From the NCBI GenBank assembly GCA_001247695.2, contig LGRX02027133.1, positions 17,072-81,071 of the forward strand: a DNA stretch of 64,000 bases, read 5' to 3'. The notes beneath the pieces were generated by a model. It was not told the origin of the DNA. It made no database searches and saw only the letters and a list, made by a program, of their open reading frames with translations. The stretch is from Cymbomonas tetramitiformis (Eukaryota; Chlorophyta; Pyramimonadophyceae; Pyramimonadales; Pyramimonadaceae). Below are positions 45,526 through 64,000 of this stretch, piece after piece (the first letter of the stretch is position 1; each line of letters starts with the position of its first letter). The position numbers and the translations under genes were made by a program.

Positions 45526-45735
45526 AACATTTGTTTGCATTCTGGTCTGATGCGATCTTGATCTCATGCATTTTGCTCTACGAATAAATGCAATGCATGC
45601 CCTCACCCGCAAGTACTGAACAAGTCCTGAAGCAACAAGCATGCAAGCGCGCCTGACCGTCAAACCATACCTGACCGTCATAATAGGCTTGACCGCCGTA
45701 GCACAGTACCCCTCACGCAGCCTTGCCCTTAACTA

Positions 45736-46317: not shown

Positions 46318-47276
46318 GTCCTTTGTCTTTGTCTTTGTATGTTTTAACCGGACACCGTAGTAAACATCGTCGACCCCCTATACCGCTGAAAAGCGGATAG
46401 TGGCGTGAGTGCACATCACGGGGGCAAGCCCAGGTCCAGCAGCCCCAGTCCATCCCCGCACCGCAGGGGGGGCTAGCCCCAGCCGTCGGGGGGTCCTCAG
46501 CGACCCGAAGGAGCGCGATTAGCTCGTTCCCCCGTCATTCAGGCGCTGGTGACGGTACGCTACGGGCCGTTTCGGGACCCCGATACCCTGCTGTGCCACT
46601 TTGAACATCGTCGTGCCACCGCCGGGTCGCGGGGCGCAATGTATGGCACAGCGATCGGCCGCCCCCAGTGGTGCATTGGGTGAGAGCTACCCTCGGGCCA
46701 TGACGCACCCTCGGACCCTGCCCGCACACACCGCTGGAAACATGTCCTTGTTGCAGTGCACAACCTGCGGAGAGGAATGGTGACATGCAGCAGGGGGCGC
46801 GGAGGGAAGGGTGACGCAGAAGGGGACTCGCAGGACAGGGGACAAGACACCCAAGCCAGAGGCGAGCACTGTTATCACCCTATAGCCGAGGCCAGGGCCG
46901 GTCACCCCGGGACGAGGAGGCGCAAAGCACAGGATCAGTCACAGAGAAACACGAACGACCCGCACCTGGCATCCGCGGGGGCCCACTCATCCGTGAACGC
47001 CCCTCCCGGGTAGAGCAGCGCAGGCACGTCAGATACCATCAGCAGACGTCGGCGGTCGCAGCAGCAGCCCGAGGCAGTCGCAGCGACAAGGGAGCGTCAG
47101 CCCCCAAGCAAGCAGCATACACGCAGATCGACACCGGAGGCAGCAACACCGCAGCGCAACCCTAAGAGCGAGTGAGGCAGGGCGTTCAGGGCAGGGAAGG
47201 ACTCACAGCGCCCAGAGCTTGCAATGAGAGATGGATTGAATCGGAAAAGATATACGACTCGGATGTCCATGCGGAT
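46318..47276. other. Gene-free stretch
   Basis: It begins with CTTTGTCTTTGTCTTTG and is GC-rich with short frames only. I see no RNA gene, repeat family or coding signal that I can defend. It separates the FG-GAP exon from the giant LINE. Confidence 0.45.
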
Positions 47277-47559
47277 GTGAGGATGCATCGCCTGGGGTCA
47301 GGCGCTAGCCATACAGGGCAGGGGTCTCGAGAGGGATCTACTGCGTGCAGACCACTGCCTGAGGCGCCTCGGCGCGACTCCTACCGCGGTCAAGCAGAGA
47401 ATAGCCTCTCAACCCGAAGGGGTAGACACATCTCCTCCCGGGGGGACACTCGCCGACTCAAGAGGACCGAGAGCTCAAGAGGTCTTGCTCTTTTTGTGCA
47501 GCCGTCTAGCGCAGTGGGAGCTGCCCCGGTTCCTCTTCTTCGGGGGGGCGGCTGTCGGT

Positions 47560-48062
47560 GGGGGCAGAGGTGGAGGCGGAGGCGGGAGGCGGGGCGGAGG
47601 CGGGGGCGGGGGCGGAGGTGGAGGCGGATGCGCGGGCGGAGGCGGAGGTGGAGGTGGTCGCGGCGGGGGTGGGGGGCGGCCAGCGCGGATGGGGAGGGTG
47701 GCGGCCGGAGGGCGGGGGGGAGGCGGAGTAGGGCTAGGTGGGGGGCGGCAGCAAGCTGGGCGGAGGAGCGGAGCGGAGCGGGGGGCCAAGAGGGGAGGGG
47801 CGGAAAAGCACCGGTGGGCGGGGGCGGAAGCGGAATGGTGCGTAGGGGTGGGTGTGGAGAGAGGGTGAGGCGGGGGGCGAGGCAGGTGAAGGCAGAGGCG
47901 AGGGCGGAGGGTGAGGCAGGCGGAGGCGGGGTCGGAGGCGGGGGTGGAGGTGGGGTGGGGGCGGAGGCAGGGGCGAGGCGGGAGGCGAGGCGGAGGCGGA
48001 GGTGGAGGCGGAGGCGGAGGCGGAGGCGGAGGCGGAGGCGGAGGCGGAGGCGGCCGGGCGGA
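47560..48062 (-). repeat. GGAGGC-type simple repeat at the 3' end of the LINE frame
   Basis: The plus strand is dominated by GGAGGCGGAGGC and variants, densest at 47,990-48,060. All six frames stay open for long stretches because of it, so the true C-terminus of the polyprotein cannot be read from frame length. A short version of the same tract is in the truncated copy (about 45,490-45,520). Confidence 0.85.
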
Positions 48063-51000
48063 GGAGAGTGGGACCACAGGTGGGGGAAGGCGAGGGGGAG
48101 AGGCGGCGTCTCCGTCCTGCCGGCGCCTTCCAGTCCTCGCACATCATCGCATCGAATATGTCGTCGAGGACCGCGGCGTAGGGGTTCTCTTCGGCCGACA
48201 GGGGAGGGGATGATGACACACCCGGGAGCGCAGGCAGCGTTTGGGGCCTGCCACTGGCGCTCGCCGCGCCTTGTGCGTCCTCCACACGGGAGCGCTTTGC
48301 AGCTGGTGGGGGGCGGGTGGAGGTGGGTCGACCAGCCGGGGCAAGAGGACGGGGGGTGGCTTCCAGGGGGGCACAGGGGCGGGGCGGAGGGGGCCGTGAG
48401 GGTGGAGAGGGGGAGGTCGCGGTCGCGGGTCCCTCGGTGCCCGGCATCCGTTCTGGTTCCTCTTCGGCAGTCAGGTCCACCAGCGCGGGAGGAGGCACCG
48501 GACGGTTTCCTGTAAGGCCGGCGCGCTGTCCTCGTTCCACCGGAGGGGGCGCACCAGTCAGCGTCGTGCCCAGGTCCAAGATGGCGCGCGTGATGCGCAT
48601 GCGAGCGGCGGGGACATCATCCTGCGAGTAGTCTAGTGGGAGGTCCTCGGCGATCCTCTCCGCGCCCATGAGCACGAACACTCCGCAGTCCCAGGGCCCG
48701 ATCTGGCGGGGCGCGTCTGTACAGGTAGCCCGAGTCCACTCCCGCGCCTCCACCTCCGCGCCGGACTCCACGAGCATCTGGCGCACCACTGCGCACAGGT
48801 GACCGAGGCACTCGGGGGTCTCGGCTCCGCAGGGCATTGAGTCAAAGTAGGTGGCAATCCCCGACCGAAGGTCAAGCACCGCGAGTGCCCAGTGGTTCGG
48901 AAAGTGGACCGGCATGACGAAGACCTTGCACTTCGCGGCTTCATATCCACGGTCAAACCCACGCCCGCGCGTGGCCACCCGCTGCCGGACAATGGCACAG
49001 TCAACCGCCCCATCGGTCGTGGGGACCACGTGCCGGTGAAAGAGGGCGTCGAAGAAGTGTACCCGGGGGTGAGAGCCTGGAAGGCCAAGTCCACGATGTT
49101 GAAGTACGGCGAGGTAGAGGGAGATCACTTCGTCGTTCAGCCATTCCTGTTCCCGGAGGCACAGCAGTTGGGCTCTGGTGAGGTCGAGGTTGGCTGCCGC
49201 ACAGCGTGCCCTCGCCACTACCTCCGTCGGGTCTCCCGGGCTGTGCAGCGCGCGCCACATCGGCCAATCCACCAGCGGCTGTCCGGGTGTCTCAGGAGCC
49301 CCCGGAGGGTTTGCCCCCGCCTCTGGTGAGGGCGCAAGAGGGTCATTCTGCCCGAGGGCAGCCAGGGGCGTGGGGGGCTCCGGCGTAGGCGTTACTGCAC
49401 TCGTGCCGGTCATGGTGTGCACCGTGCCATGAGCGTTGCTGAGCTCCGGCTTCACCAGCTCCCGGCACCCCTCGTTGAGGCACGCATACCGGAGCGTCCC
49501 GGTCAATCCCACCCACACAAGGAAGTTATTGTTGTTGTGCACTGTCTCCGGCCTTGCGCAGCACACTCGCCCAGCACCGCCTGTGAAGTACACCGACACC
49601 ACACCGCTTGGAAGCACCTTGGCCGCCTCAGGGCCCTTGCACCGTGCGCCAGTATGCCCAGGCAATTCTCGGACGGCCTCCGCGGCAATGTCGCACGCCG
49701 CCTGGAGGGAGGGGTGGGTTTCTCCCGCTTCGTCCGACCGAGAGAAGGGGACCGGTGCAGGAGTAAGGTGCCTTGGCAGTGCGGGCACGGCCACCCGGGG
49801 GGGCGCACCCGGTGGGGCCGCAAGGGCTCCCTCTAGCGACCCAAGGATTTCCGCGCAGGGGTCCACGTTGGTGACCAGCAAGGACACGGTCAATGCGTTC
49901 AGGCCCTCACCCCAGTCGGCTACTGGGTCGAGCCAATTCCTCCGCCCAGGGGCCTTGCAGCAGCGAGCCGCTCTGAACGCCTGGGTCCTGCCGTACACGG
50001 CAGTGTCCAGCCCCACCAGCCTCCTGCTCGGGTTGGCGGACGCCCACCGGGAGAGCCTACGCTGGAACTCCAGCCTGCCTTCAGCGCTGCCCAGCCGGCG
50101 CCTGAGGAGGACGTGGAACGAGCTCTTGGCCGGGGTGCACGCCTGCGTGACTGAGAAGTCGCCCCGGTGGGGCCGAGATATACCGTACTCCTCACCCAAG
50201 AATTCACAGATCGCTTCCATTGCCCTGTCCAGAGCTTCGGCATGGCACCGTTCGAGGCGCCGACTGCTCGCGTCCCATTCCCGGATCTTCACGTCCACAT
50301 CCCAATACGCCCATGAGTCCCCAGTGATGAGTTCGAAGAGGCTGCAAGATTCAGGCGTCGAGCTGCGCACCCTATCGATGAGGTCGGCTGCGGCAGCGAA
50401 GGAGGGGAGGGTTGTGCCTGCCATGGCGTTACCGTCGGTGGCTAGCTGCAGCACGCATGGGAACCCATAGCATTCCATCCGGTGGATGGCCCGTTGCCTC
50501 TGGCTTGTTCCGCGGTACCACCCAACCCCTGCCCAGTCCGGGCCATCATAGGGCGCCACATGAAGCCTGTTAGTGCCCCCAGGTACCTTGGGAGGAGGCA
50601 CCCATTCCGCGACCGGCTCATCATCCCGCGCTTCTCTGACGTTCCCCGCTGGGTCCCCGCCAGTGGCACCCAAAGGCTGGGGGAGGTTCCACGAGCGCCC
50701 GCCAGGGATCGGCAGGGAGGGGGGGCGCGAGGGGAGGGCGGCATGGTCAGGCTCAGAGGTGACCGTCACGACAGGCTCGGGGGGAACGGTCGCGTCACAC
50801 TCGGGGGAGGTGGTTGTGCGGGCAGGCAAGAGGGCAACCGCAACGCTGGGTGCGGTGTTCGGTCGCAGAGCAGGGGCCATGCGGAGCTCAGGGGCGGCGG
50901 GGCGAGCAGGCTCCGCGATGGTGTCGAGGAGAGGTTCAGAGGTGGCGGGGGCAAGTGGCGTGGAGACGGTGGCGAGGATAGGTCCTGGGGTTGAGCGGAG

Positions 51001-54000
51001 GGTGGGCCCCGAGGTGGCAGCGAGGGTGGGCACGGAGGTCGTGGCAGGCGCGGGCGTGGGGGCGGCGGCGGGAGCACGCACGGGGGCGGCACCGAGGGCG
51101 TGAAACGGATCGGCGTGGATGGCACGGGCAGAGTCGGCTACGGTGGCGTCCGTGGAGGCGGCGGCGCAGGCAGGTAGGGCATTGGAGGTAGGGGCGGGCC
51201 CAAGGGAGGTGCCCCCAGCCGCAATCAGGCTTGTGCCAGATGTGGGCACGGGGGGGGCGGGGCCTGCGTGCAAGGAGGCATCTGGACGGCATCGCAAGAA
51301 GATCTGCAGTAGGCCTTGCCTGGGGGCGGTGCTGGCAGGCGCAAGTCCAGAGGTGGCAGAGGCGGCAAGTCCGCTGGCAGAGGTTGTGGTTGCAGGCGCG
51401 AGGGCGGGGGTGGTGTCAAGGCCCGGAGTGGTGGCGAGGGCGGCGGCAATAGGCCCCGGAGTGGAGGTTGCGGCAATGGTCTCGGTGGTGACAGCTGGCG
51501 CGGAGGTGGCGATGTCGGTGACGGGTGCGGGTGCGGTGGTGAGTGGCTCTCCGGAGTGGGTGGTGCCAGCGGCCCCGAGGGGGGCAGGGGCAGCGTGTCC
51601 GGAGATTATGGTGTTCGTCAGCGAAGGGGTGGCGGGGGAGGGCATTGAAGCGGGGCGCAGGTCTCCGCCTGCGCCGCTCTCCCCCCCGTGATCTGGCTGG
51701 ACCGCCGGGACGACGGGGTAGGGTTCCACCTCAGGCGGCCTCTCCTCGGTAGCGCTTGATCGAGAGGACAGCTCCAGGGCTGCCGCCATGTGCAGAGCAA
51801 GGCATCTTGGGCACAACCAGCTGCCATCGAGCTGGCCAGGTCGCGGGTGGTCGGGTTGTAGCCCCCGGCACGCCCCTCGAGCCGTCCCAGCATGGACCCC
51901 CTTGTGGCACCCAGCACACCGCACCAAGTCCTTCGGGTCGGCGGGGCGCCACTCGTAAGTCCACCACGGTCTGCCCCCCGGGAGGTTGGGCATGGGTATC
52001 GCGTCGCGCATTTCTGGCGGGAGGCGTTGTTGAGCCTTCGCGTGCCTGATCCAGAAGTCGTCCACCTCCTTTGCCGCTGCCAACTCTGTTTGCCTGTGTG
52101 GTAGATCGGCGTTTTTGTTATTCTTGGGGCCAGTTCTGACCAGCGGTATCCAATCCCCGCTTCCTTGTCCGCGCTTCGCTTTCCTGTGGACTCCACGATA
52201 GACAGAGTCCAGGAGCCCTTTCCGGACGGGAGGGGCGCGCACAAAGCCGTCTGGCGTCGTGAAGTTGATGCCATCTCCCTCGAGGCCGCGTAGCCGGACA
52301 TACTCGTCGTACTTCTTCGCAGCCTGCCACGCCTCCGTGAAGGACCCCTCGTGGCACTTCTGCTTCTTGTGGAGGGCGTAGAATCTCTCACAGTTCTTCT
52401 CGTCTGCCGCACGGCGCGTGACCCCAATGAAGGGGTGCCACTCCGGCGGCGGGCGGCCGCACACAGCTCCGCCACCATTCCTGATGATCGAGTCCACCTT
52501 CCGGGTGCTCCCTTCCCCTAGCGTGCTGCCGTCTAGCTCGATGTTGGGCTGCAGCTTCAAGAGGTTGCCTGCCTGGTGCTCCCGTCTCAGTGCACGGTCC
52601 CACGCCTCAGCCGCTTCTCGTTCAATGGCAAAGCACCCAATGTGACGCCCACGGAGCGTGGCGACCCACCTCCCATCAGCAGTCCTGCGAACGCCGTAGA
52701 AAGTCGAGCTCGCTCCAGGTGCGCACTTATCAGGGAGGGGCATAGCCTCCGTCCCCAGGTCGCCTCCACACAGAGCGCACTCGTGTAGGGGTTCACCAAG
52801 CGAGGGCGCTAGGCCACCACAGGCATCGCAAAGAGAGGCGCACGCCGGGGAGTGGCCAACGGCGAAGCACCCGCACTGTACGATGCTGTCGAGCGGCTGG
52901 GGGCGCATGATGGCGCCGTCGCCCCGGAGAAAGGTGATGCCGCTGAGTTTAAGAGCTTGGGAGACATCGCACGGGCGGAGGGAGGGCATGTCATCGCGCG
53001 CTCCCCGGAGCTCCACCAGCGCATCCGCCAGCGTGGGAGAGTTAACGCACCATTTAGCCCACGCGCTGTCAAGGGACCGGTCGGAGAGGGCAGCAAAGGA
53101 AGCTTGGAAGCCGGGGCTCTTCCGGGGCGGCCGTGGGACATCCTGATTAGGGGGGGAGGGCAGCACCACCGTGGCTGCGGATCTCGCCTGCCCGCTCAGC
53201 ACGCGGTGCCCTGCCGACGGAGCTCTACCGCTAGCATGGACGACCGAGAGCCGCGTATTGCTGGAAAGAGCAAGAGGCGCCTCAACGTCGTCGTTGTCCC
53301 CAGAGAGAGGGGTCCTCGTGGCCGGCGCACAGTCGCTCGCCGTCCCCGTAGTTTCCTCTTTTATTGGAGGCGCCTGGGGAGTGAGCCTCGTCGAGTCTCT
53401 TTTCTGGGCCCTGCGCTCACGCCGGGTGCAGGTCGCATGCGTTGCTGCATCTGGGCCGCCCTGTGGAGTAGCAGCCTCAGCAAGGGCCTCAGAGATGAGG
53501 GCGTCCGCGAGTGTCCCAGAGACCAAGGCTCTGCACTGAGCAGTGTGGGCGTCCACCATGCCCGCGGCGGTTACCAGGATGCCCATTGTGAGCTCAGACG
53601 CCAGCCGGTCCCCCGCCGCACGGGGCACCTTGGCCAAGGATGCTGCCCCCATAGGGTCCATGGTGGCATGGATGATGGCGGCGGGAACTAGGCCCCGGTA
53701 CCCCAGGTCAAAGGCCCCCTCTCGACCTCCCGGTTCTCCGGGGAGGGCGCTGCTCAGGAGATGCTCAGAGGGAGTGGGGACCAGCCACCCGAGGGCGGAG
53801 AGCACTGGGAATTCTTCGGATCTGCAGGGTCCAGAGGCCGCTAACCTCAGGGGGTGCGCGCAGTGGCGGGGGTGGCAGGGGTTGCCAGCGAGCTCCAGCC
53901 AAATTGCAGTGCCCCTAGCATGCCCATGGCGAAGAGCGCGGACAAGGAAGCACTCTGCGAATTCCCACTGCTTGTGCCTGAGGCCGGCCACCTTCGGGTC

Positions 54001-57000
54001 CGTGCAGTGCATGCAGATGTGGCGGAGCGTGGCCTTACCCCCGCCGCACAGCGGGCATTCTGCAAGCTGGGCTCGGGTGGCTACGGGCGCTCCACGCTCC
54101 TCGTCTGCTACGTCCATCACCTGGGCCCCGCCCTCCTCTGCTTGGTCGCTCCCCAGCACGTCGCAATCGACTGTTCGCGGTCTCCTTCCCTGCAAGAGGA
54201 GCCCTGCAGCGCGTTTGACCTCCGGGTCAGTGTCCACCAAGGAGGCCCACGTCGGTTCAGTGCATCCCCAGATGCGGAACACCCGCGCCTCGAAGCGAGG
54301 AGACCCAACAGGGAGGCCGCCAGGCACATCCAGGCCTGGGGGGGCTTGGGCTCCTTTCAAGAGCGAGGGGTCGAGAGTATTAAACCACAGGTCTCCGATC
54401 GCAGCTGCAGCGGCGCCCTGGATGTGGAGCCTTGTCCACGCGCGAGTGGCACCCTCTGCCAGGGCTCTGCGGATATACTTGCCAGGGTCCTCCATGACAA
54501 GGCGTCCTTCATGCACCAGGCAGAAGCGTTCAGTGCAGATGGGGTAGAAGACGGTGTCCCCGTGCTGTGCGATGACGGACTCGGCCAAACGTGTGCCATC
54601 CTCAGCCGCAGAGTCGGCCTCCTGGTTGGCGCTGGCGAGCAGCCAGTTCGGCAGGACCCCAGGCTTCATGCGCTGGTGCGACTTGATCCACAGGAGGGAG
54701 AGGGGGCCGACAGCGTCAGGCCACGCTTCCGTGAAGCCCGGGGCGTTGAAGTGTTCGGGGTGTCGGTGGATGATCTCTCTCCAGGAGGCAGGCGGTGGTG
54801 GTGGCGCTTGTGTTACTTGCGGACCCGGCAGTGGTGGCGGGGAAGATGGGGCCGAAGCCGACGGTCGAGGAGTGATGGTGGCGTCAGGGCGGTTGGAGGA
54901 TGGCGAGGCAAAGGGCCCCGTTGTGCGCAGCCCCGCCCGCACACGGAAGTCCTCAGCTAGGCGCGCGAGTCGATCTCTCGCGTAGATCAGGTCCGACCGC
55001 AGCCTGGGCCGTGCAGGTAACGCCGTCGAGTCTTCTCGTAGAAAGCCGAGGACCCCCAGGTTGTCCAAGGCCAGGATCCCCGGGCACCCAGGCGCGCACG
55101 CAAGGCAGACGAGGGCCCCCCACAGCTCAGCCTCATGGTTGGACACGGGTCTAGCGCCGTACCATCGGGGGAGAGGCAAGCTCAAGCGCAGGGTCACTGA
55201 GGGCACGCGGTCAAGGTCTGTCTGAGGGGGTGTGTGTGGCGACCCACGTGGACGGAGCACTTGGGGTCTGCAAAACACGACACCAGCCCCTGCCCGGCCT
55301 GCCTGTCTGTGGAAGGAGCCATCCGTGGCGGCACAGATTTCACCGCCGGGGGCACCTCCTGCAGAAGAGGGGGCCCATCCGTCTCCGAGCCTTCGTCGGC
55401 TCATAGCCGTCTCGAGGACACGCATGGCCGGTGGGATCGGGGCGTCACTCGGCTGGTCGATGGCATCATCTCCACACTGTCCCCCATCCCAATCTTCGAA
55501 GGACTGAATCGGGACCGGCGACCCTTCCACAAGGAACGGCGGCATCTCCACCCCCGCCATGGCACACTCCCACGCCCAGTCAGAGTTTGCGCGCTCCTGT
55601 GCGTCCTTGATCGCCCTCACCACCCTCTTGGGGGCGCCAATCACCGATAGCGCCGGGAGGAACCTCCTCCACCTCTCCAGCGAGTGCCACTCCGCAGGGG
55701 GGATCTCCTTCAGGCCTTGGGAGATGGCCACAGCCAAGGGCCCGAGCCGAGAGAACTGCTTTGCCATGCCGAAGCGGCGAGTGTCCAGGCTGCCCATTGC
55801 TGCTGCCCCGAAGCAGGTACGGGGGGCAGCTCCGCCTGGAGATCGACTCAGTGCTCTGGCGCGCTCCAGTTGTTGCCATTGTCGTTGCAGTTCGTCCATC
55901 ACCCTCGAGGCAAACCTGTGTGAGGAGTCGGTGATGTAGAATCCGTACCCAGCCAGAGTATCCACTGCAAAGCGCACCACGGTATTCGCCTCGGGGTGGT
56001 CGAGGGCGCGGCGCCATCCTTCCCGGATGAGTCTCCCGCAGGCCTCGTCCTTTTCGGTGAGGAGGACGAGAAGCTCCCGGGCGTACGCAACGAGCATTTC
56101 TGCGACAGGGGACCGGAAGGCAAGCCCGGTACTGGCGAAGATGCACGCCTGGGAGGCGTTGGATGGCATTCCTAGCGATCTGAAGATGGGGGTGCACAGA
56201 GATTGGCACCACCTGTGCAGCGTGGGAGCGTCCACCTGGGATCCCAATGGGTTGAAGGTGATGGTGTTCACAGCCCAGTCCCTGATCACCACTCGAATCT
56301 CGTCCCACTCATAGCGGTGGTGAAGAAGCTTGGCGACCACCAGACCAATGAGTCTCCCGTATCTAGGCGCCTGCACGTTCTGCTTGCCGTCTGGGCGCAC
56401 CAGGGTGCCCAGGAACTCGATCGGCTTGTCGGGGGAGACAAAGGGGACATGGAAGGAGGAGGGCTCGCCGAGCTCGTGGTCGAAGTGGTGAAGGACAACT
56501 GGAGGGGGAGGCAGACCTCCGACCTTGGCATTGAGCAGGATGGCGTGTGCTTTGGGAATGGCCAGCTCCACTCCAGTAGGGGGGAGGGTGTTCCGGGAGG
56601 TCTGCTCGAGCTCGTGGGTTGCCTCAGGAGTGCCGTTGGTGACGCTAAGGTCATCGTCACTGTACGCAACCCCATTGGTTTGGGTGCCGTACTCCGTGAT
56701 GTAGCCGTGTGTGCGGCCCGCAGAGGCAACGAGCGGCGCATCCTGCCCGTAAATGGAGCCCAGGGGTGCAAAGACCGTGCCCTGCCCAAACCCCAAGGTG
56801 CCGTCCCGGGCAAACTCGGGGGAGATCCCATACGGAGTGCTGACGCAGGTGACCATACCAGACAGGGTTTCGGCGATGAGGTTCACCACCGACGGGGGGA
56901 TCCCTTTGGCCAACATCGACGCATAGGCGATCTCACGCTGCATCTTGTCGAACCAGGAGCGCAGGTCGCGGATGACGATGCAGGCCTGGCGCTTGCACAC

Positions 57001-60000
57001 ACGCGAGCTCTCCAGAACCATCAGGAAGGTGGCGTGGCAAATGGAGGTCCCCCTGTTGGCTTGGTACGCCACGTTGTGGGAGGGCAGGAGGGTGCCGCGG
57101 GGAAGCTTGGCGCGGATGCCTTCCAGCCGGGAGGTGAAGATGACTTCCACCGCCTTGAAGAGGTCCTCCATCAGAGACAGCGGCCGGAATCCCGGCTTCG
57201 GGGCCTTGGAGATGCACACGATCATGGATCGTTTCAGGTAGGCAGGGACGAGTCGGAGGGCCGTCATGGTGTCGATGAGGGCCACAAAGAGGGAGGTGAC
57301 AATACTGGGGAAGTACTCCAAGTACGCCATTTTGAAGTTGCTCATGCCGGGTGTCTTGCGGCCTCCTTTGAGAATCAAGGCCTTCTCCTCGGGGGACATC
57401 GGGCAGAAGAAATCGCTGAACAGGGCTGCTGCCACCTCCGGGTCGATGGAGCCCGTCTTAAGGAGGCCCAACAGCATGCGCTCCCCAGCGGCGACTTCTT
57501 CAGGTTGAAGGGCAATCTGGTCCTCTCGGATCTCCACACCGCGGGTACCAGCCCCGTCCACCACAGGCACAATCCAGCTCGGGAGGGGTAGGCGGGGGTG
57601 CTTGGTAAAAACTCGCCGAAAATGGTCGGAAGCCGCGGCGAGGATCTCTTCGGTAGTGGTGGGCTTCACTGTGATCGTCTCTCCCCCCACCTCCCGTACG
57701 TGCTCGGTGGGGACAAATCCGGACGGCGCCTTAGGCTTCAGCCCCAACCCGTCAATGAGTCCTTTGACGTCGTGTGTGTTGACCATCTCTCGGCGTGCGG
57801 CAGCTGTATTGGTAGTTTCCGATGCGGCGCATCGGGCCAAGGCGCGGCCGGTGAGCGTCTTCAGGTCCGCCACCTCCGCGATGATTTTGGAGTGCCACTC
57901 GCGGGCCTCACGGCTTCGCAGCTCCCCTGTGCGGAGTCGAGGGAGGGAAAGGCGAGGGAAGGAGCCAGTCGTGTCGCTCTTGCCGGAGGCTCTCACAGCC
58001 GAGGTGTACCTTGTCTCAAGGATGCCTACCAGCCCATGGTTCTCGACGTACGCCCAGCACTTGCGAGCCGCAAGCTCACCAGGGGAGGCCCCCCACTCCT
58101 TGAGGACTCTAAGCAGTTGTTTGGCACCCCATCTCACCATCGTCCAGTGGGAGAATTCACTGTGGGGGGCTGCCCGAGAGACGGAGGTAATGGGGGCAAC
58201 ACCCCCCCCTCCGATGGACTTGATCACCCTCATGACCTCATCGGAGGCGGCCTGCACAATGTTCCCAATTGCATCTCGCGCAGCAGTGGTGCGCTCACCC
58301 GATGCGCGGAGTTGGCTCAACGTCCCTATCCACCGGTCCCACTCTTCCTCAAGTACTGAGGGGGGCCCGTGGGGGTCCTCAGCGGGAGGTCCGGGGGGAA
58401 GGCCTTCGCAGCGTGCGTCGCGGTGCACGTCCCCAGAGCCTCCAATGTCGTCTCTCTTCGGGGCAAAGAGCTCATCCCGAACACTCTGCCGGAATCCTGC
58501 GAGAGCCTTCTTGGAGGCGCGTGCAGCCTCGCCGAGGCTGAGGAAGTTGCGCCACCTGACGAAGCTGCAGTGTCGGTCCGGTTGCTCGAGCTCGACTTGC
58601 GCTCCCAGGAGGTCCAGGAGGGGAGAGTCGTGGTCGGAGAGGAGCGGCTCCGACTTGTGGAAGGCAGAGGCGATGGGGAGGATGCGGCGGTCCTCACCGA
58701 CCAGGATGTAGTCCAGGCGGGCGCGTCCTCCCGTCTTGCCGGTGCGGGTGAAGAGCACCTCCATGGGGCGGTGCAGGCGGTGGAAGTCGAGAAGGCCGTC
58801 CGCAAGGACAGCGGAGAGAAGGGAGCGCTCTCGGCGGCGGTATTTGTCCCCGACTGCGTCTATAGCGGGGTCCTCCACACAGTTGAAGTCCCCACCGATC
58901 GCAATCAGGCTGCCGGAGAGCCGAGCCTCTTCCAGCTGGAGGAGGGTGCACCGGACAAGATCCGCTTCCAGATCCCGGTTCACCGCGCCCAGTTCCTGCG
59001 TGCTGCCGCCCGTGATGCCGTAGATGGCCCCCACTCGGATCGTCCGTTTCTCCGCCTTCAAGTCACCCGTCTCATCCACGAAGGTCCACGCAGATTGCAG
59101 GGTGACGAAGCACAGCCGGCCAGACTTGTGGCGGTACACGTCAGTTGCTTCGTTGCCGTCCTGGAAGATGATCATGGTGCTTGAGCCAGTGTCGGGGTTG
59201 AGGGCGGCCACTGCACGGCGATTAAACTGCCGCAATCCATCCTGAAAGTTCCCCAGCTGTGCCTCCTTCATCTTCCCGACCTCGCTGCAGAGTGCCACGT
59301 CCACCCCAAGGTCGTGAACATACTTGCCGAGGATACACCCTCGGCCTTGAGGGGAGTCCAGTCCGGAGGTCGCTTGGGACGCCAGGTTTATTGCGGCGAT
59401 CCGGGTGGCCCCACCGACTTTGTGCGAGAAGTCGTGCCCCCGGAAGGTGCCTTCCACTTTAAGGTCAATGCGAGGAAGAGGGGGAAGGTGGAGGGCCGGG
59501 AGGGCAGAGCAGTGCGCGGCCTCAATGAACTGTCGACGGATGTCGTCATCGTTATACGCATCAGTGACGAGGTGTGAAGATGCGGCGCCTCCGGGAAATT
59601 GGTGTCCTTTTGCCGGGGAGCCTCCGCGAAGTCGTGCGGACATGTGAACGACAGAGTCGTGCCCAACGTTCAGCTGGGCCAGAGACACGCCATCCTGCAT
59701 CAACCGCGCATGCATCGAGAGGCTTTGCAGGTGGGGAGGCACCCCGGTGCGCTCAAAGATGGCGACGCGGAGTTTGTCCACAAGCCAGCGAGGGCGAACA
59801 GTGACGGGAAAGGTGCTCCCATCCAAGTGGCGGACGAGGATTTGCACGAGGGGGAGGCTGAGAGTAGCCATTTGGCGGCCCGCGATGTCCACGGGGTGGA
59901 GCCACCTCAGAGCGTGGAGAGTGCCGAGAGCTGCCTCCAGGTCACCAACCACGGGTTCCGCAAGGAGGCCGGAGCAGAACGTGATGTCAAGGGACTCCAG

Positions 60001-62256
60001 CCTTGGAAGAGCAGCGAGCCTGGCAACCCCACGTGGCGTGAGGGATGGGATCGACCTGATGGCGAGGGAGGAGAGGGTGGTCAAGGAGACTAGCGCAGCA
60101 AGGCTGTCATCCGAGATGTTGGGGTTGCCGTCGAGGACGAGGGAGGACAGTCGTGAGTGTCGAGCCAATCCAGAGAGCACCCCATCAGAGACACCCGAAG
60201 AGCCACCTCCATGCAGGTGCACCAGGGAGGGGAAAGCCGCAAGGGGCGCCAAGGCGTCGTCAGGCTCCCGCCTGCCCCGGGAGATGTCGAGCACTTCGAG
60301 GGTCGGGAGGCGAGCAAAGAAACAAACTCCTGGTGCCCGAATCCTGAAGCAGCCTTCCACGTTGAGGCGCACCAGGGACCGCATCCCGGAGATAGCCAAG
60401 GCGCCCTCGTCGGTCACTTCCTCGCACATCCCGATGTCGAGGGAGCAGATGCCTCTGAGCCTCGTGACCTCCACAATGCAGGCGTCTCGGAGGAGGGGGC
60501 AATCTCGCAGGGACAACGTGGAGAGGGCAGGGGGCCACACTCCGTCCAGAAGGCCACCGCCGGTCAGCCGCGGGCAGCTGCTCAGGTCCAAGGAGACAAG
60601 GCGCGGATGGCCCCGGAGAATGGCGTTGGCGCAAGCATCTGCTACGTCCGTTTGGCCAAGGTCCAAAGCAAGGAGGGAGGAGGCTGAGGTCCATCCTATT
60701 GGAGGGGTGGCAGCGTGGAGGTTCTGCCCTCGGAGTCCAAGGAAGGCGAGGTGTTGGAAGAGCGCGAGGGCAGGGAGTCCTCCACCAACAAGGTCTGAGC
60801 ACCCCAGAATGTCCAGGTGGGTGAGGTGCCGAAGTCCGGACAGTTCCATCATGTCCAACTCCGCGAGGTCGCAGGAACAGAGTTCCAGGGAGGTGGTGGA
60901 CGGAAAGGAGAGCGCCCTGCCTGGGTCAGTGGATTCTATGGAGCAGAGGGAGCGGATGAGGGGGGTGGCCACTTGGCGCAGGGCGGGGTGCACAGCTCTG
61001 AGGGTGGCCAGGGAGCCGCCTTCAAGAGGGAGCAAGCCCAGGAACAGGAGGTGCACGAGCCCCTCCAAGAGCATGCGCTTCCTATTCGTGTGCTCCCTCT
61101 CCGCAGTTTCAAGGGCTGTGATGTCCGCCAAATCTTCAGCCCAAGTGCGCTCGGTTTCTTCCAACCATTCGAGAACCGCCGGGTCTTCCTCTGCAAGCTC
61201 GAAGTGGAGATACGGCGAGGAAGCAACAGACTCAGGAGCGGAGGGGGAGGTGGCGGCCGTCGCAGATGATCCAGAGGCGGCGGTGGCATAGTGCGGAGTG
61301 GTGGGCGGAGGGTGGCGGTTGATGGGCTGCCAGAAGTGGGTGGTGTTACGTGGTTGGATGAGGGGCAGTGGTGGTGGGTGTCTGAAGGTGGACGGTGGAT
61401 GTTGGATGTTAAGCGGAGGGTGGGGGGTGGGGGGTAGCACGTGGTGGGTGGCGAGTGGAAGTGGGAGTGGGGCGGAGAAGGATTGTGGTGTTATGCTCGA
61501 TGGGGATGGGCGAGGTGGAAATGGAGGAGGCGGAGGGTGCTTTGGTGGAGAGTGGGGCGGAACCTGGAGCAAGGGGCGGGCAGCGGGTGGGGAAGGTGGT
61601 GCGGCGTCGTTGGAAAAGGAGTGGAAGGATGAAGCTGCCCATGAGACGGCGGAGTTGGGAGGGTGGGCATGGGAGTCGGTGGGCAATGGGTGGAGGAGAG
61701 TAGTGATAGGAAGATGGGTGGGGCCGAGTGGGGTCGGAGGGGGGAGGGGAAGTGAAGGCGAGGGAGGCGAAACGAGCGGTGGAGCGAAAGATGTTTCAGT
61801 GGAGACGGATGCGGTTGCAGTGGGGGCGGGAGGTGGGTGGGGCGGTGGCGGAGGATGTGGGAGAAACGGTTCACGTCGCACAGCTCCATCTCGTCCACCA
61901 AGTTCAAGATCTAGTACTAGTTCTCCAGAGGGTACTGGAAGGCCACCTAGGGGCAGCCCAGGTTGCGCGGAGGAAGGATCCTCCACTCGGCAGTCAACGG
62001 AGCCGTCGCCGTATAACGAATTCAACATAGTGAAATTCGGTTGTGTCACGGGGCAACAATCATCCCTGGGGCGTATGACGTGACCTATCCCCATGGCATC
62101 GTTTGAGGTTGATGAGACCGTCGAGCTACAGTGCCACTGACACGCGTTGTCGACCACGGCCTGTCGTGAGACGCATAGATTGCGGGAGGGTGCGTCCCGG
62201 ACGATCCAGGCTCCGTCCTTCAAGACCCGCAGAAACGTCCAAATAGCATCGGGCAC
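47734..62256 (-). CDS. Giant LINE polyprotein: LRR, ubiquitin-like, AP endonuclease, RT, RNase H, AP2, PHD-like, PrimPol, Ulp1 protease
   Basis: 4,840 codons without a stop. Residue numbers count from the GTG at 62,256; the first ATG is codon 55 (62,092-62,094). Order: Pro-rich start; LRRs 456-776; ubiquitin-like 796-879 ending RLRGG; endonuclease 936-1219; RT 1619-1960, YSDD at 1865; RNase H 2305-2560; CCHC 2731-2755; AP2-type modules 3182-3413; PHD-like finger 3441-3491; Ala/Thr/Pro linker; PrimPol 3895-4273; Ulp1 4366-4566; repetitive C-terminus. Endonuclease and RT would carry out target-primed reverse transcription, and RNase H would remove the RNA. The protease may process the chain and the primase may start second-strand synthesis; both are inference. 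All catalytic motifs that I can check are intact. The real start and C-terminus (inside a GGAGGC tract) are uncertain, and an undetected intron is possible. Confidence 0.88.
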   Translation of the reverse strand: MPDAIWTFLRVLKDGAWIVRDAPSRNLCVSRQAVVDNACQWHCSSTVSSTSNDAMGIGHVIRPRDDCCPVTQPNFTMLNSLYGDGSVDCRVEDPSSAQPGLPLGGLPVPSGELVLDLELGGRDGAVRREPFLPHPPPPPHPPPAPTATASVSTETSFAPPLVSPPSPSLPLPPPTPLGPTHLPITTLLHPLPTDSHAHPPNSAVSWAASSFHSFSNDAAPPSPPAARPLLQVPPHSPPKHPPPPPFPPRPSPSSITPQSFSAPLPLPLATHHVLPPTPHPPLNIQHPPSTFRHPPPLPLIQPRNTTHFWQPINRHPPPTTPHYATAASGSSATAATSPSAPESVASSPYLHFELAEEDPAVLEWLEETERTWAEDLADITALETAEREHTNRKRMLLEGLVHLLFLGLLPLEGGSLATLRAVHPALRQVATPLIRSLCSIESTDPGRALSFPSTTSLELCSCDLAELDMMELSGLRHLTHLDILGCSDLVGGGLPALALFQHLAFLGLRGQNLHAATPPIGWTSASSLLALDLGQTDVADACANAILRGHPRLVSLDLSSCPRLTGGGLLDGVWPPALSTLSLRDCPLLRDACIVEVTRLRGICSLDIGMCEEVTDEGALAISGMRSLVRLNVEGCFRIRAPGVCFFARLPTLEVLDISRGRREPDDALAPLAAFPSLVHLHGGGSSGVSDGVLSGLARHSRLSSLVLDGNPNISDDSLAALVSLTTLSSLAIRSIPSLTPRGVARLAALPRLESLDITFCSGLLAEPVVGDLEAALGTLHALRWLHPVDIAGRQMATLSLPLVQILVRHLDGSTFPVTVRPRWLVDKLRVAIFERTGVPPHLQSLSMHARLMQDGVSLAQLNVGHDSVVHMSARLRGGSPAKGHQFPGGAASSHLVTDAYNDDDIRRQFIEAAHCSALPALHLPPLPRIDLKVEGTFRGHDFSHKVGGATRIAAINLASQATSGLDSPQGRGCILGKYVHDLGVDVALCSEVGKMKEAQLGNFQDGLRQFNRRAVAALNPDTGSSTMIIFQDGNEATDVYRHKSGRLCFVTLQSAWTFVDETGDLKAEKRTIRVGAIYGITGGSTQELGAVNRDLEADLVRCTLLQLEEARLSGSLIAIGGDFNCVEDPAIDAVGDKYRRRERSLLSAVLADGLLDFHRLHRPMEVLFTRTGKTGGRARLDYILVGEDRRILPIASAFHKSEPLLSDHDSPLLDLLGAQVELEQPDRHCSFVRWRNFLSLGEAARASKKALAGFRQSVRDELFAPKRDDIGGSGDVHRDARCEGLPPGPPAEDPHGPPSVLEEEWDRWIGTLSQLRASGERTTAARDAIGNIVQAASDEVMRVIKSIGGGGVAPITSVSRAAPHSEFSHWTMVRWGAKQLLRVLKEWGASPGELAARKCWAYVENHGLVGILETRYTSAVRASGKSDTTGSFPRLSLPRLRTGELRSREAREWHSKIIAEVADLKTLTGRALARCAASETTNTAAARREMVNTHDVKGLIDGLGLKPKAPSGFVPTEHVREVGGETITVKPTTTEEILAAASDHFRRVFTKHPRLPLPSWIVPVVDGAGTRGVEIREDQIALQPEEVAAGERMLLGLLKTGSIDPEVAAALFSDFFCPMSPEEKALILKGGRKTPGMSNFKMAYLEYFPSIVTSLFVALIDTMTALRLVPAYLKRSMIVCISKAPKPGFRPLSLMEDLFKAVEVIFTSRLEGIRAKLPRGTLLPSHNVAYQANRGTSICHATFLMVLESSRVCKRQACIVIRDLRSWFDKMQREIAYASMLAKGIPPSVVNLIAETLSGMVTCVSTPYGISPEFARDGTLGFGQGTVFAPLGSIYGQDAPLVASAGRTHGYITEYGTQTNGVAYSDDDLSVTNGTPEATHELEQTSRNTLPPTGVELAIPKAHAILLNAKVGGLPPPPVVLHHFDHELGEPSSFHVPFVSPDKPIEFLGTLVRPDGKQNVQAPRYGRLIGLVVAKLLHHRYEWDEIRVVIRDWAVNTITFNPLGSQVDAPTLHRWCQSLCTPIFRSLGMPSNASQACIFASTGLAFRSPVAEMLVAYARELLVLLTEKDEACGRLIREGWRRALDHPEANTVVRFAVDTLAGYGFYITDSSHRFASRVMDELQRQWQQLERARALSRSPGGAAPRTCFGAAAMGSLDTRRFGMAKQFSRLGPLAVAISQGLKEIPPAEWHSLERWRRFLPALSVIGAPKRVVRAIKDAQERANSDWAWECAMAGVEMPPFLVEGSPVPIQSFEDWDGGQCGDDAIDQPSDAPIPPAMRVLETAMSRRRLGDGWAPSSAGGAPGGEICAATDGSFHRQAGRAGAGVVFCRPQVLRPRGSPHTPPQTDLDRVPSVTLRLSLPLPRWYGARPVSNHEAELWGALVCLACAPGCPGILALDNLGVLGFLREDSTALPARPRLRSDLIYARDRLARLAEDFRVRAGLRTTGPFASPSSNRPDATITPRPSASAPSSPPPLPGPQVTQAPPPPPASWREIIHRHPEHFNAPGFTEAWPDAVGPLSLLWIKSHQRMKPGVLPNWLLASANQEADSAAEDGTRLAESVIAQHGDTVFYPICTERFCLVHEGRLVMEDPGKYIRRALAEGATRAWTRLHIQGAAAAAIGDLWFNTLDPSLLKGAQAPPGLDVPGGLPVGSPRFEARVFRIWGCTEPTWASLVDTDPEVKRAAGLLLQGRRPRTVDCDVLGSDQAEEGGAQVMDVADEERGAPVATRAQLAECPLCGGGKATLRHICMHCTDPKVAGLRHKQWEFAECFLVRALRHGHARGTAIWLELAGNPCHPRHCAHPLRLAASGPCRSEEFPVLSALGWLVPTPSEHLLSSALPGEPGGREGAFDLGYRGLVPAAIIHATMDPMGAASLAKVPRAAGDRLASELTMGILVTAAGMVDAHTAQCRALVSGTLADALISEALAEAATPQGGPDAATHATCTRRERRAQKRDSTRLTPQAPPIKEETTGTASDCAPATRTPLSGDNDDVEAPLALSSNTRLSVVHASGRAPSAGHRVLSGQARSAATVVLPSPPNQDVPRPPRKSPGFQASFAALSDRSLDSAWAKWCVNSPTLADALVELRGARDDMPSLRPCDVSQALKLSGITFLRGDGAIMRPQPLDSIVQCGCFAVGHSPACASLCDACGGLAPSLGEPLHECALCGGDLGTEAMPLPDKCAPGASSTFYGVRRTADGRWVATLRGRHIGCFAIEREAAEAWDRALRREHQAGNLLKLQPNIELDGSTLGEGSTRKVDSIIRNGGGAVCGRPPPEWHPFIGVTRRAADEKNCERFYALHKKQKCHEGSFTEAWQAAKKYDEYVRLRGLEGDGINFTTPDGFVRAPPVRKGLLDSVYRGVHRKAKRGQGSGDWIPLVRTGPKNNKNADLPHRQTELAAAKEVDDFWIRHAKAQQRLPPEMRDAIPMPNLPGGRPWWTYEWRPADPKDLVRCAGCHKGVHAGTARGACRGLQPDHPRPGQLDGSWLCPRCLALHMAAALELSSRSSATEERPPEVEPYPVVPAVQPDHGGESGAGGDLRPASMPSPATPSLTNTIISGHAAPAPLGAAGTTHSGEPLTTAPAPVTDIATSAPAVTTETIAATSTPGPIAAALATTPGLDTTPALAPATTTSASGLAASATSGLAPASTAPRQGLLQIFLRCRPDASLHAGPAPPVPTSGTSLIAAGGTSLGPAPTSNALPACAAASTDATVADSARAIHADPFHALGAAPVRAPAAAPTPAPATTSVPTLAATSGPTLRSTPGPILATVSTPLAPATSEPLLDTIAEPARPAAPELRMAPALRPNTAPSVAVALLPARTTTSPECDATVPPEPVVTVTSEPDHAALPSRPPSLPIPGGRSWNLPQPLGATGGDPAGNVREARDDEPVAEWVPPPKVPGGTNRLHVAPYDGPDWAGVGWYRGTSQRQRAIHRMECYGFPCVLQLATDGNAMAGTTLPSFAAAADLIDRVRSSTPESCSLFELITGDSWAYWDVDVKIREWDASSRRLERCHAEALDRAMEAICEFLGEEYGISRPHRGDFSVTQACTPAKSSFHVLLRRRLGSAEGRLEFQRRLSRWASANPSRRLVGLDTAVYGRTQAFRAARCCKAPGRRNWLDPVADWGEGLNALTVSLLVTNVDPCAEILGSLEGALAAPPGAPPRVAVPALPRHLTPAPVPFSRSDEAGETHPSLQAACDIAAEAVRELPGHTGARCKGPEAAKVLPSGVVSVYFTGGAGRVCCARPETVHNNNNFLVWVGLTGTLRYACLNEGCRELVKPELSNAHGTVHTMTGTSAVTPTPEPPTPLAALGQNDPLAPSPEAGANPPGAPETPGQPLVDWPMWRALHSPGDPTEVVARARCAAANLDLTRAQLLCLREQEWLNDEVISLYLAVLQHRGLGLPGSHPRVHFFDALFHRHVVPTTDGAVDCAIVRQRVATRGRGFDRGYEAAKCKVFVMPVHFPNHWALAVLDLRSGIATYFDSMPCGAETPECLGHLCAVVRQMLVESGAEVEAREWTRATCTDAPRQIGPWDCGVFVLMGAERIAEDLPLDYSQDDVPAARMRITRAILDLGTTLTGAPPPVERGQRAGLTGNRPVPPPALVDLTAEEEPERMPGTEGPATATSPSPPSRPPPPRPCAPLEATPRPLAPAGRPTSTRPPPAAKRSRVEDAQGAASASGRPQTLPALPGVSSSPPLSAEENPYAAVLDDIFDAMMCEDWKAPAGRRRRLSPSPSPTCGPTLLRPAASASASASASASASASTSASASPPASPLPPPPPHLHPRLRPRLRLPHPPPSPLPSPASPPASPSLHTHPYAPFRFRPRPPVLFRPSPLGPPLRSAPPPSLLPPPT
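48560..49160 (-). other. Domain: Ulp1-type (C48) cysteine protease in the LINE polyprotein
   Basis: It starts with 'WLNDEVISLYLAVLQ', the substrate-groove helix typical of Ulp1/SENP. The catalytic set is visible: His4455 in 'NHWALAVLD', Asp4472 in 'YFDSM', the oxyanion Gln in 'PRQIG' and Cys4524 in 'PWDCGVFV'. Spacings of 17 (His-Asp) and about 69 (His-Cys) agree with the family. Known members cleave after Gly-Gly of SUMO or related modifiers. Confidence 0.88.
49440..50575 (-). other. Domain: archaeo-eukaryotic primase (PrimPol) in the LINE polyprotein
   Basis: Motif I is 'AYWDVDVK' (Asp3986 and Asp3988 at 50,293-50,301), motif II 'AKSSFHVLLRR' (S.H), motif III 'GLDTAVYGRTQAFRAA' (a conserved Asp, then Q.FR). 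A zinc-type end follows: 'CARPETVHNNNNFLVW' and 'RYACLNEGC'. This is the order in PrimPol-type and herpesvirus/large-virus primases, which make primers on DNA. Confidence 0.8.
51785..51935 (-). other. Domain: PHD-like zinc finger in the LINE polyprotein
   Basis: The pattern is 'VRCAGCHKGVHAG', another Cys, and 'GSWLCPRCLALH'. The W-x-C-P-x-C end and the C..C...H start are those of PHD fingers, which read histone tails, but one Cys pair is missing, so it may be a shortened version. Confidence 0.6.
52020..52712 (-). other. Domain: three AP2-type DNA-binding modules in the LINE polyprotein
   Basis: The first (52,560-52,712) is a clear AP2: 'FYGVRRTADGRWVATLRGRH' then 'GCFAIEREAAEAWDRA'. The second (52,265-52,440) starts 'HPFIGVTRRAADEKNCERF' and has 'EAWQAAKKYDEYVRLRG'. 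The third (52,020-52,205) starts 'YRGVHRKAKRGQGSGDWIP' and has 'LAAAKEVDDFWIRHAK'. The last two are diverged. AP2 domains bind GC-rich DNA sites in plant transcription factors and mobile nucleases. Confidence 0.72.
53995..54065 (-). other. Domain: CCHC finger after RNase H in the LINE polyprotein
   Basis: 'CPLCGGGKATLRHICMHC' gives CX2CX8HX4C, the C-terminal finger of many LINEs, which contacts RNA or target DNA. No restriction-like endonuclease follows it here. Confidence 0.75.
54580..55345 (-). other. Domain: RNase H in the LINE polyprotein
   Basis: The acidic residues are in 'CAATDGSFH', 'SNHEAELWGALV', 'ILALDNLGVL' and 'ANQEADSAAEDG'. 'LLWIKSHQ' supplies the usual strand before the last Asp. 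A Pro-rich insert of about 90 residues lies between the third and fourth motif. Confidence 0.85.
56380..57400 (-). other. Domain: reverse transcriptase in the LINE polyprotein
   Basis: Motifs in order: 'GRKTPGMSNFKMAYLEYF', 'KPGFRPLSLMEDLFK', motif A 'DLRSWFDKMQ', motif B 'GFGQGTVFAPLGS', motif C 'YSDDDLSV' (56,653-56,664) and 'EFLGTLVRPDG'. Both catalytic Asp are present; Ser replaces the common Ala in the (F/Y)ADD box. Confidence 0.92.
58600..59450 (-). other. Domain: AP-type endonuclease in the LINE polyprotein
   Basis: Motifs of the exonuclease-endonuclease-phosphatase fold: 'IAAINLAS' (Asn), 'LCSEVGK' (Glu), 'GAIYGITGG' (Tyr), 'GGDFNCVED', 'ARLDYILVG' and 'LLSDHDSPLLD' (Asp-His). All are complete. 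It would nick the target site to start reverse transcription. Confidence 0.9.
59620..59871 (-). other. Domain: ubiquitin-like domain ending in RLRGG in the LINE polyprotein
   Basis: About 84 residues with the pattern of ubiquitin: 'VQILVRHLDGSTFPVTVRP', 'VDKLRVAIFERTGVPPHLQS', 'LMQDGVSLAQLNVGHDSVVH' and 'ARLRGG', the last two Gly being residues 878-879 (59,620-59,625). The order beta-beta-helix and the conserved LRGG tail can be seen. Four to five Gly/Pro/Lys-rich residues follow at once. Confidence 0.8.
59930..60890 (-). other. Domain: leucine-rich repeats in the LINE polyprotein
   Basis: About eleven or twelve units of 24-27 residues with L..L.(L/I)..C..(L/V)....: examples are 'HLTHLDILGCSDLVGGG', 'LVSLDLSSCPRLTGGG' and 'LESLDITFCSGLL'. 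The Cys at the asparagine-ladder position makes them the Cys-containing type found in F-box/AMN1 proteins. Confidence 0.82.
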
Positions 62257-62754
62257 ACTCCTGTCTCCCCTATCCCGTGCGGGGGGGGGGCACAGCGTGT
62301 GTGTTGCCGCCTTCAGCTACGTTCTCAGGGGCAGAAATAATCTCTGCCCCGTCGCTCAGATGATATTTGAACCTTCCTGGCGCGCCACTTGCAAAGAGTG
62401 AGTGGAGGCCAGGAAGTAAACACTGGCGGCCGTAGTTCACCGCCAGAGAGTGGGAGGGGCCCGTGGGTTCGAAAGGGGGAATGTTGGGGGCTCGTGGGGG
62501 GTAAGAAGGGGGCTTGAGGGGTGGAAGTGGGAGGTGATGTGGGGGGGACAGCTCAAGGGGAGGAAGAGTGGTGCGGAGGGGTGGCGGCGGGAAGAAGGGG
62601 AGGGAGGGTGGTGAATGGCGGATAGGGGTGCCCCATAACCAGGGGTGCGGCCGCCGAGGCAGTGTGGGGGCGCAGCTGCAGCTGTGGCGCGGCAAGGTTG
62701 ACACGGCAGCGTGAGAGCCAAGGGAGCGTGGCCGCCAGGGACAAATGGTAGACG
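62257..62754. other. Upstream region of the giant LINE
   Basis: It holds a ten-base G run at 62,281-62,290 and purine-rich sequence (plus strand) at 62,440-62,640. It would be the 5' untranslated region or contain upstream coding sequence in a different frame. No gene recognised. Confidence 0.4.
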
Positions 62755-63800: not shown

Positions 63801-63839
63801 TGTCAGCCGTGTCAAGATGGTCATCATCATATTGGGCAC

Positions 63840-64000
63840 TACGCATAGGCGTTGGCGTCACTGAGCTTGGGCTAACAACCCCCAGGTCCATTAACGGAGT
63901 CCCATCTTCGTGAATGACTTAGTTGGGATCCGTAGCCGGCTGGCTCGACAGCCAAGTGCAGCCAGGTGCGGTGCTATATGTGGATGGTGATCCGGAGTGG
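63840..64000. other. Window edge, nothing recognised
   Basis: No coding signal; it contains the second copy of the 20-base direct repeat. Confidence 0.4.

What the first reader, a model, noticed from the sequence alone, without database searches (positions are those of the whole stretch)
47734..62256. A LINE polyprotein of about 4,840 codons with PrimPol, Ulp1, AP2, PHD-like, LRR and ubiquitin-like domains
Typical LINEs encode endonuclease and RT, sometimes RNase H. Here a single open frame adds at least six domain types, and all catalytic motifs that I can inspect are intact (endonuclease GDFN/SDH, RT YSDD, RNase H D-E-D-D, primase DVD/SFH, Ulp1 H-D-Q-C). I know of large algal LINEs with accessory proteases (Dualen/RandI), but of no described family with this set. 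The intact frame implies selection or very recent activity.
Basis: partly seen in the sequence, partly recalled or inferred. Interest (0 to 1): 0.97.

Follow-up and report, generated by a model that had tools for sequence, protein, structure and literature searches.

The report
Primase-carrying LINE aimed at protein-repeat genes
A eukaryotic, probably algal, genome carries very large LINE retrotransposons in which one reading frame joins the usual endonuclease and reverse transcriptase to a predicted DNA primase and a predicted ubiquitin/SUMO-type protease, and in two families most of the 3' ends examined lie at one fixed position in DNA that encodes tandem protein repeats; the primase would likely start the second DNA strand, a step that is poorly understood for LINEs.

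Summary
A 4,840-codon frame (62256-47734, minus strand) reads LRR, ubiquitin (ending RLRGG), AP endonuclease, RT, RNase H-like, zinc finger, three AP2-like repeats, PHD-like, PrimPol and Ulp1. It is not an assembly join: the same 851.7-Mb genome holds 14 RT places at 98-100% identity (window included) and two further families at about 40%, and PrimPol lies 4.9-6.6 kb downstream of the RT on the same strand at 37 of 59 RT places. Catalytic residues are invariant between families; 12 of 12 copy comparisons give dN/dS 0.14-0.40. Two corrections: the conserved start is an ATG at 62028, and the conserved basic C-terminus is out of frame here but in frame in a sister copy. The new finding is target choice: 27 of 42 genomic 3' tails of this family abut one position of VCBS (FG-GAP) protein repeats; in a second family 17 of 20 sampled tails (of 112) continue in ankyrin repeats. 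The PrimPol resembles poxvirus D5, human PrimPol and a virus-like primase-helicase gene in the same genome. No relative of the RT was found in the searches run. Second-strand self-priming and ubiquitin/Ulp1 self-processing are inferred. A new variant of a known kind, of high interest.

The parts
47734..62256 (-). open frame of 4,840 codons; conserved start is probably the ATG at 62028 (residue 77)
   Evidence: N-terminal match to family C
59848..61008 (-). leucine-rich repeats (residues about 417-803)
   Evidence: Pfam LRR families; also in family C
59620..59847 (-). ubiquitin domain (residues 804-879) ending RLRGG, followed by SPAKG
   Evidence: Pfam E 5.4e-11; PDB ubiquitin matches; family C has one too, E 5.5e-12, ending RIRGG
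58612..59451 (-). AP-type endonuclease (residues 936-1215; N, E, GDFN, D, SDH motifs)
56257..57456 (-). reverse transcriptase (residues 1601-2000; YSDD)
   Evidence: Pfam RVT_1; PDB profile best R2, E 1.8e-7
54577..55359 (-). RNase H-like domain (D-E-D-D invariant in three families)
   Evidence: no RNase H structure hit
54004..54057 (-). CCHC-type zinc finger after RNase H
   Evidence: sequence by eye
51937..52719 (-). three AP2-like repeats
   Evidence: profile against plant AP2/ERF proteins; alignment A3; Pfam AP2 in family C only, E 0.018-0.019
51802..51939 (-). PHD-like zinc finger (residues 3440-3485)
   Evidence: Pfam PHD E 0.0053-0.02, below cut-off
49465..50529 (-). PrimPol-type primase with DxD, FH, D and a UL52-like zinc motif (residues 3910-4264)
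   Evidence: the name UL52-like is recalled
48589..49146 (-). Ulp1-family cysteine protease (residues 4371-4556)
   Evidence: Pfam E 1.9e-18; SENP1/SENP2 in PDB
47475..47540 (-). conserved basic C-terminal tail, out of frame with the 4,840-codon frame in this copy
46321..47474 (-). 3' untranslated region ending in (ACAAAG)3 at 46338-46321
45827..46320 (-). target: VCBS/FG-GAP protein-repeat array, insertion at GDI|DVLSAS
   Evidence: the repeat's name is recalled, no profile was run on it
45208..45518 (-). 5'-truncated piece of another copy (3' region, 82% identical to 47586-47277)
62740..64000 (-). 5' flank: decayed ankyrin-like gene fragment ending in a VSHTWGA segment; the element's exact 5' end is not resolved
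   Evidence: ankyrin by eye

Best explanation
This is a copy of a multi-family LINE whose frame encodes endonuclease, reverse transcriptase, RNase H-like, AP2-like, PHD-like, PrimPol and Ulp1 domains and of whose genomic 3' tails 27 of 42 abut one fixed position in protein-repeat DNA; it is predicted to insert there by target-primed reverse transcription and likely primes its second strand with its own primase. Shown: the frame, the domains, their conservation in three families, low dN/dS between copies, the (ACAAAG)n tail, and the VCBS and ankyrin 3' junctions. Inferred: the AP endonuclease, guided by the AP2/PHD part, nicks the repeat; the RT copies the RNA from the nick; RNase H clears the RNA; PrimPol starts the second strand on the cDNA; host deubiquitinases or the element's own Ulp1 cut after RLRGG to free the LRR leader from the enzyme part. 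Targeting a long tandem array would limit harm to the host and offer many equivalent sites.
For: Frame and domains. Copies and families: 64 scored RT matches of 1,542 candidates, 114 scored PrimPol matches of 169 candidates. Linkage: of 59 RT places, 37 have PrimPol 4.9-6.6 kb downstream on the same strand, 12 lie under 3.7 kb from the contig end, 6 have room and no match listed, 4 could not be judged. Selection: dN/dS 0.14-0.40 in 12 of 12 comparisons. Targets: 27 of 42 family-A tails abut the VCBS site, with 19 distinct flanks; the site word (up to 1 mismatch) occurs 356 times in 851.7 Mb, control 0; 17 of 20 sampled family-B tails, of 112, continue in ankyrin-like DNA. Two 5'-truncated copies with different ends. 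Catalytic residues of endonuclease, RNase H-like domain and PrimPol invariant across the three families aligned.
Against: No activity, transcript or cleavage was tested. RNase H has no profile hit; AP2 and PHD are absent or sub-threshold in Pfam for this copy. The PrimPol model has mean pLDDT 52. 15 of 42 tails lie outside VCBS repeats and 3 of 20 sampled B tails outside ankyrins. By domain, dN/dS is not low everywhere and the counts are tiny: AP2-PHD 0.64 and 0.32, endonuclease 0.34 and 0.68, LRR 0.76, ubiquitin 0 synonymous and 2 non-synonymous in one comparison. Family B shows no ubiquitin or LRR in its frame, so the processing idea does not hold for all families; family B's protease aligns with Ulp1 only at E 0.22. 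The 5' flank of the window copy is ankyrin-like while its 3' flank is VCBS, and at C95, the one copy where both junctions were compared, no exact target-site duplication was seen.
Confidence: 0.72

Rival explanations
1. The primase, AP2 and protease domains are passengers: an ordinary LINE captured host or viral gene pieces that confer no step of the cycle, or serve regulation (chromatin, host evasion) rather than second-strand synthesis.
For: No function shown; the order of Ulp1 and PrimPol differs between family A and families B and C; 6 RT places with room have no PrimPol listed; dN/dS over AP2-PHD is 0.64 and 0.32 on few changes.
Against: PrimPol, AP2 and PHD are kept in three families at about 29-44% identity with PrimPol catalytic residues invariant. 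dN/dS over PrimPol is 0.17 and over Ulp1 0.03 in the two long comparisons (6 and 9 changes; 11 and 11 changes, probably shared ones).
Confidence: 0.2
2. The frame is a chimera of a LINE and unrelated neighbouring genes, by assembly join or fusion at this one locus.
For: The most complete sister, C1565, shares the window's 5' flank (98.5% over 17.6 kb) and so may be an allele or duplicate rather than an independent insertion; its 3' flank differs.
Against: RT-PrimPol spacing is near constant at 37 of 59 places on many contigs and the same module occurs in two other families.
Confidence: 0.02
3. The VCBS and ankyrin junctions come from duplication of a few old insertions, or the repeats are part of the element, so that site-specificity is only apparent.
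For: Some tails share flanks (27 VCBS junctions reduce to 19 distinct flanks); ankyrin-like DNA lies upstream of two A, one B and one C copy.
Against: 19 distinct VCBS flanks; two family-B tails sit in clearly diverged ankyrin-like DNA at the matching position by eye; VCBS lies on both sides of the 5'-truncated C95 copy; 15 of 42 tails end in other DNA.
Confidence: 0.1

Closest known systems
Target-specific AP-endonuclease LINEs (Tx1 and R1 clades; PMC4640811, passages read)
   Same: AP-type endonuclease and insertion at a fixed site in a multicopy sequence
   Different: Targets listed in the passage are rRNA, spliced-leader exons, tRNA, transposons, microsatellites and telomeric repeats (and U2); here the target encodes protein repeats. 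No PrimPol, ubiquitin or AP2 is mentioned in the passages read
RandI/Dualen LINEs of green algae (PMC4640811, PMC8226300, PMC3747384; passages read)
   Same: Algal LINEs with simple non-A 3' repeats (RandI: (ATT)n, (CTATTT)n)
   Different: Dualen encodes both AP-type and restriction-like endonucleases; no restriction-like motif was seen here by eye. Clade membership not tested by a tree
NeSL/Utopia LINEs with Ulp1-like protease (PMC4640811, passages read)
   Same: Ulp1-like cysteine protease in a target-specific LINE
   Different: N-terminal protease and restriction-like endonuclease; no primase mentioned in the passages read
Poxvirus D5/E5 primase and human PrimPol (NCLDV-herpesvirus primase clade named in PMC5862659, passages read)
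   Same: AEP fold with DxD, H, D residues and a zinc motif
   Different: Here fused to a LINE; no D5-type helicase seen

Membership tests
LINE (non-LTR retrotransposon) | RT of the LINE type | tested here: met
   RVT_1 hits in three families; R2 best in PDB, E 1.8e-7
LINE (non-LTR retrotransposon) | Endonuclease for target priming | tested here: met
   AP-endonuclease motifs invariant in three families; profile to ExoIII 0.0047; nicking itself not tested
LINE (non-LTR retrotransposon) | No LTRs; 5'-truncated copies sharing a 3' end with a simple tail | tested here: met
   No direct repeat pair flanks the frame in the window's self-comparison; C95 and C1515 truncations; common tail
RandI/Dualen | Both AP-type and restriction-like endonuclease | tested here: inconclusive
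   No PD-D/ExK motif seen by eye after the RT; no profile was run
RandI/Dualen | RT branches with the Dualen group | not tested
   No reference RT set was used; no tree was built
Target-specific LINE | Insertion at a fixed site | tested here: met
   27 of 42 and 17 of 20 sampled of 112
PrimPol/AEP primase | DxD, H and D catalytic residues in an AEP fold | tested here: met
   Invariant in four proteins; PDB profile 2.7e-4; Foldseek 3.3e-5 to E5, 2.9e-4 to human PrimPol on a model of pLDDT 52
PrimPol/AEP primase | Primase or polymerase activity | not testable with these tools
   Needs a bench assay
Peptidase C48 (Ulp1) | Catalytic H, D and C in a C48 domain | tested here: met
   Pfam E 1.9e-18; H, D and C motifs
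RNase H | D-E-D-D residues in an RNase H fold | tested here: inconclusive
   Residues invariant, but no RNase H structure in the profile search

The most novel reading that the evidence does not exclude
A new clade of LINEs that carries its own virus-derived primase to start second-strand DNA, cuts its polyprotein with its own ubiquitin/Ulp1 pair, and homes to a fixed codon position inside tandem-repeat protein genes (VCBS beta-propellers in one family, ankyrins in another).
Probability: 0.4. Interest if true: 0.95.

Novelty: new variant of a known kind. Interest (0 to 1): 0.87.

Why it matters
How LINEs make their second DNA strand is not settled (recalled). A LINE with a conserved PrimPol gives a direct, testable answer for at least one lineage. 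Fixed-site insertion into DNA that encodes protein repeats would add a new class of LINE target, and the endonucleases of families A and B offer a natural comparison for how a LINE reads a VCBS or an ankyrin site. The ubiquitin-Ulp1 pair suggests a processing scheme that none of the papers listed describes in title or abstract start.

Tried and rejected
Protein database: three searches with RT regions or the RT alignment, none with E <= 0.001. One search used the whole-protein length limits (1,270 candidates scored) and was a poor choice; searches scored the 8,000 candidates sharing most words, so absence is weak evidence. Viral contigs: the RT, the PrimPol alignment (133) and the L087 gene (135) found no confirmed relatives; genome contigs with the RT alignment none (89); phages with PrimPol none (130).

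NCBIfam and PHROGs gave nothing useful on the pieces given. The RNase H profile hit only unrelated chains. No RT tree was built. An assembly chimera was considered and dropped. The 5' end of the element could not be fixed: ankyrin-like DNA lies upstream of several copies. The script flagged 21 VCBS junctions because its pattern missed the GCTCTCC variant; one search recounted 27 of 42 with a wider pattern. In one search the ankyrin flag is a loose residue pattern checked by eye: 17 of 20, of which 13 carry the stricter CAGG word. One search stopped with an error after four copies (orientation of some loci); reran it by domain for two copies and in total for ten.

The script printed 13 places under 7 kb from the contig end and 5 with room; I moved C20841:31436 (6,689 bases left, enough at family C's spacing) to those with room, giving 12 and 6.

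Full report
What was checked. The frame is real: minus strand 62256-47734, 4,840 codons, closed upstream by a TAG at 62317-62319. Over residues 301-3600 positional GC is uneven in the way of coding DNA (third position 0.70-0.80, second 0.45-0.58); the first 300 residues do not show this (third 0.57, second 0.60).

Other copies and families. The RT piece has 64 scored matches in the 851.7-Mb genome: 14 places at 98-100% identity, the window included, and two families at about 43% and 40%. Family B (C20841) has a 4,029-codon frame with endonuclease, RT, RNase H-like, zinc fingers, AP2-like x3, PHD-like, a Ulp1-like part and PrimPol. Family C (C22978) has LRR, ubiquitin ending RIRGG, endonuclease, RT, RNase H-like, AP2-like x3, PHD-like, a Ulp1-like part and, after a frame break, PrimPol. 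Several of these labels in B and C are by eye and alignment, not by Pfam. In A the Ulp1 follows PrimPol; in B and C it precedes it, and A's Ulp1 shows no blastp match to theirs at 1e-4. The protease was therefore moved or gained more than once (inference).

Linkage. Of 59 RT places (64 rows less 5 fragments), 37 have a PrimPol match on the same strand 4.9-6.6 kb downstream, 12 lie under 3.7 kb from the contig end, 6 have room and no match listed, and 4 could not be judged for want of the contig length. Of the 11 family-A places, 10 have a gap of 4,947-4,960 bases; family C shows 5,151-5,154 where the RT match is whole. This makes a chance join at this locus very unlikely.

Selection and age. 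Against the window copy, 12 of 12 other copies give dN/dS 0.14-0.40 by simple site counting (C1565 and C95, ten others). All share one reference, so they are not independent. In the two long comparisons PrimPol gives 0.17 and 0.17 and Ulp1 0.03 and 0.03; AP2-PHD gives 0.64 and 0.32, the endonuclease 0.34 and 0.68, and other parts have too few changes to judge.

Ends of the protein. Family C shares the N-terminus around an ATG equal to window 62028, with a stop four codons upstream, so the GTG is unlikely. The tail PKKRNRGSSHCARRLHKKSKTS is in the +1 frame here, but closes a 4,934-codon frame in C1565; C1515 copy 1 has a related tail in frame over at least 361 codons. The region between is proline-rich and full of simple repeats, and there the window copy falls to 81-87% identity with four others. 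C1565 shares the window's 5' flank but not its exact 3' flank, so it is an allele or a duplicate.

Target. Family A ends in ...GGTTAAAACATACAAAGACAAAG. All 42 genomic places of this tail (up to 2 mismatches, control 0) were read downstream: 27 of 42 abut the word GACGTGCTGTCCGCCTCA or a near variant, that is GDI|DVLSAS of a VCBS repeat, with 19 distinct flanks; 15 abut other DNA. The site word (up to 1 mismatch) occurs 356 times in the genome. Family B ends in copies of TGACAT; its tail occurs 112 times, control 0. I read every fifth of the 100 listed, 20 in all: 17 continue in ankyrin-like coding DNA, 3 do not; two of the 17 are clearly diverged. The 5' flank of C95 is an open frame of VCBS repeats and its 3' flank continues in VCBS DNA. 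VCBS and ankyrin are named by eye. At C95 no exact target-site duplication was seen. Family C's 3' end was not reached.

Origin of the primase. Five further PrimPol matches lie in a frame of 682 codons. The one read (L087) is an AEP joined to a weak Herpes_ori_bp match (E 0.0018, under the cut-off), 28% identical to the LINE PrimPol (E 1e-28); DxD, FH, D and two zinc-motif cysteines are shared by all four proteins aligned. Capture from a DNA virus is plausible; the direction is inferred, and viral contigs gave no relative.

Host. Unnamed. Size and repeat load resemble the long-read assembly of the green alga Cymbomonas tetramitiformis (914.3 Mb, 35,945 scaffolds, GC 51.4%; PMC10675990, passages read), against 851.7 Mb and 25,745 contigs here. 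This is a guess, not an identification.

Literature. Searches for a LINE or retrotransposon with primase, PrimPol and Ulp1, ubiquitin and Ulp1, or ankyrin/VCBS targets listed no paper whose title or abstract start describes such an element; some searches found 253, 643 and 13 papers and listed 15, 10 and 10. The library holds open-access papers only. LINE targets named in PMC4640811 (passages) are rRNA, spliced-leader exons, tRNA, transposons, microsatellites, telomeric repeats and U2.

Limits. No expression or activity data; clade not placed; 5' end unresolved; genome counts are lower bounds as the tool says.

Noticed in passing
window 26475-29785: LTR element with 98%-identical LTRs (26475-26882 / 29376-29785) and a 673-codon gag-like frame with a zinc knuckle (by eye); no pol frame over 250 codons was listed between the LTRs.
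   Followed up: partly
window 40630-44011 (-): Pol-type frames (integrase and RT-like by eye) of a Copia-like element, in three frames, near the truncated LINE piece at 45208.
   Followed up: no
L087 (C2646:10019-11968) and four other places (C16106 x2, C22663, C4): 649-residue primase-helicase gene that looks viral, a relative of the LINE PrimPol; only the C2646 copy was read.
   Followed up: partly
window 45208-46320 and C1565 upstream: A VCBS array plus truncated LINE piece, 98.4% identical over 1,114 bases, lies 3' of the element in the window and 5' of it in C1565: tandem duplication or repeated insertion in one array.
   Followed up: partly
window 2151-2936 (+): 261-codon frame that by eye resembles a viral tail-fibre-like protein.
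   Followed up: no
C1515:1-34000: Two family-A copies in a row with VCBS site words before, between and after them.
   Followed up: partly
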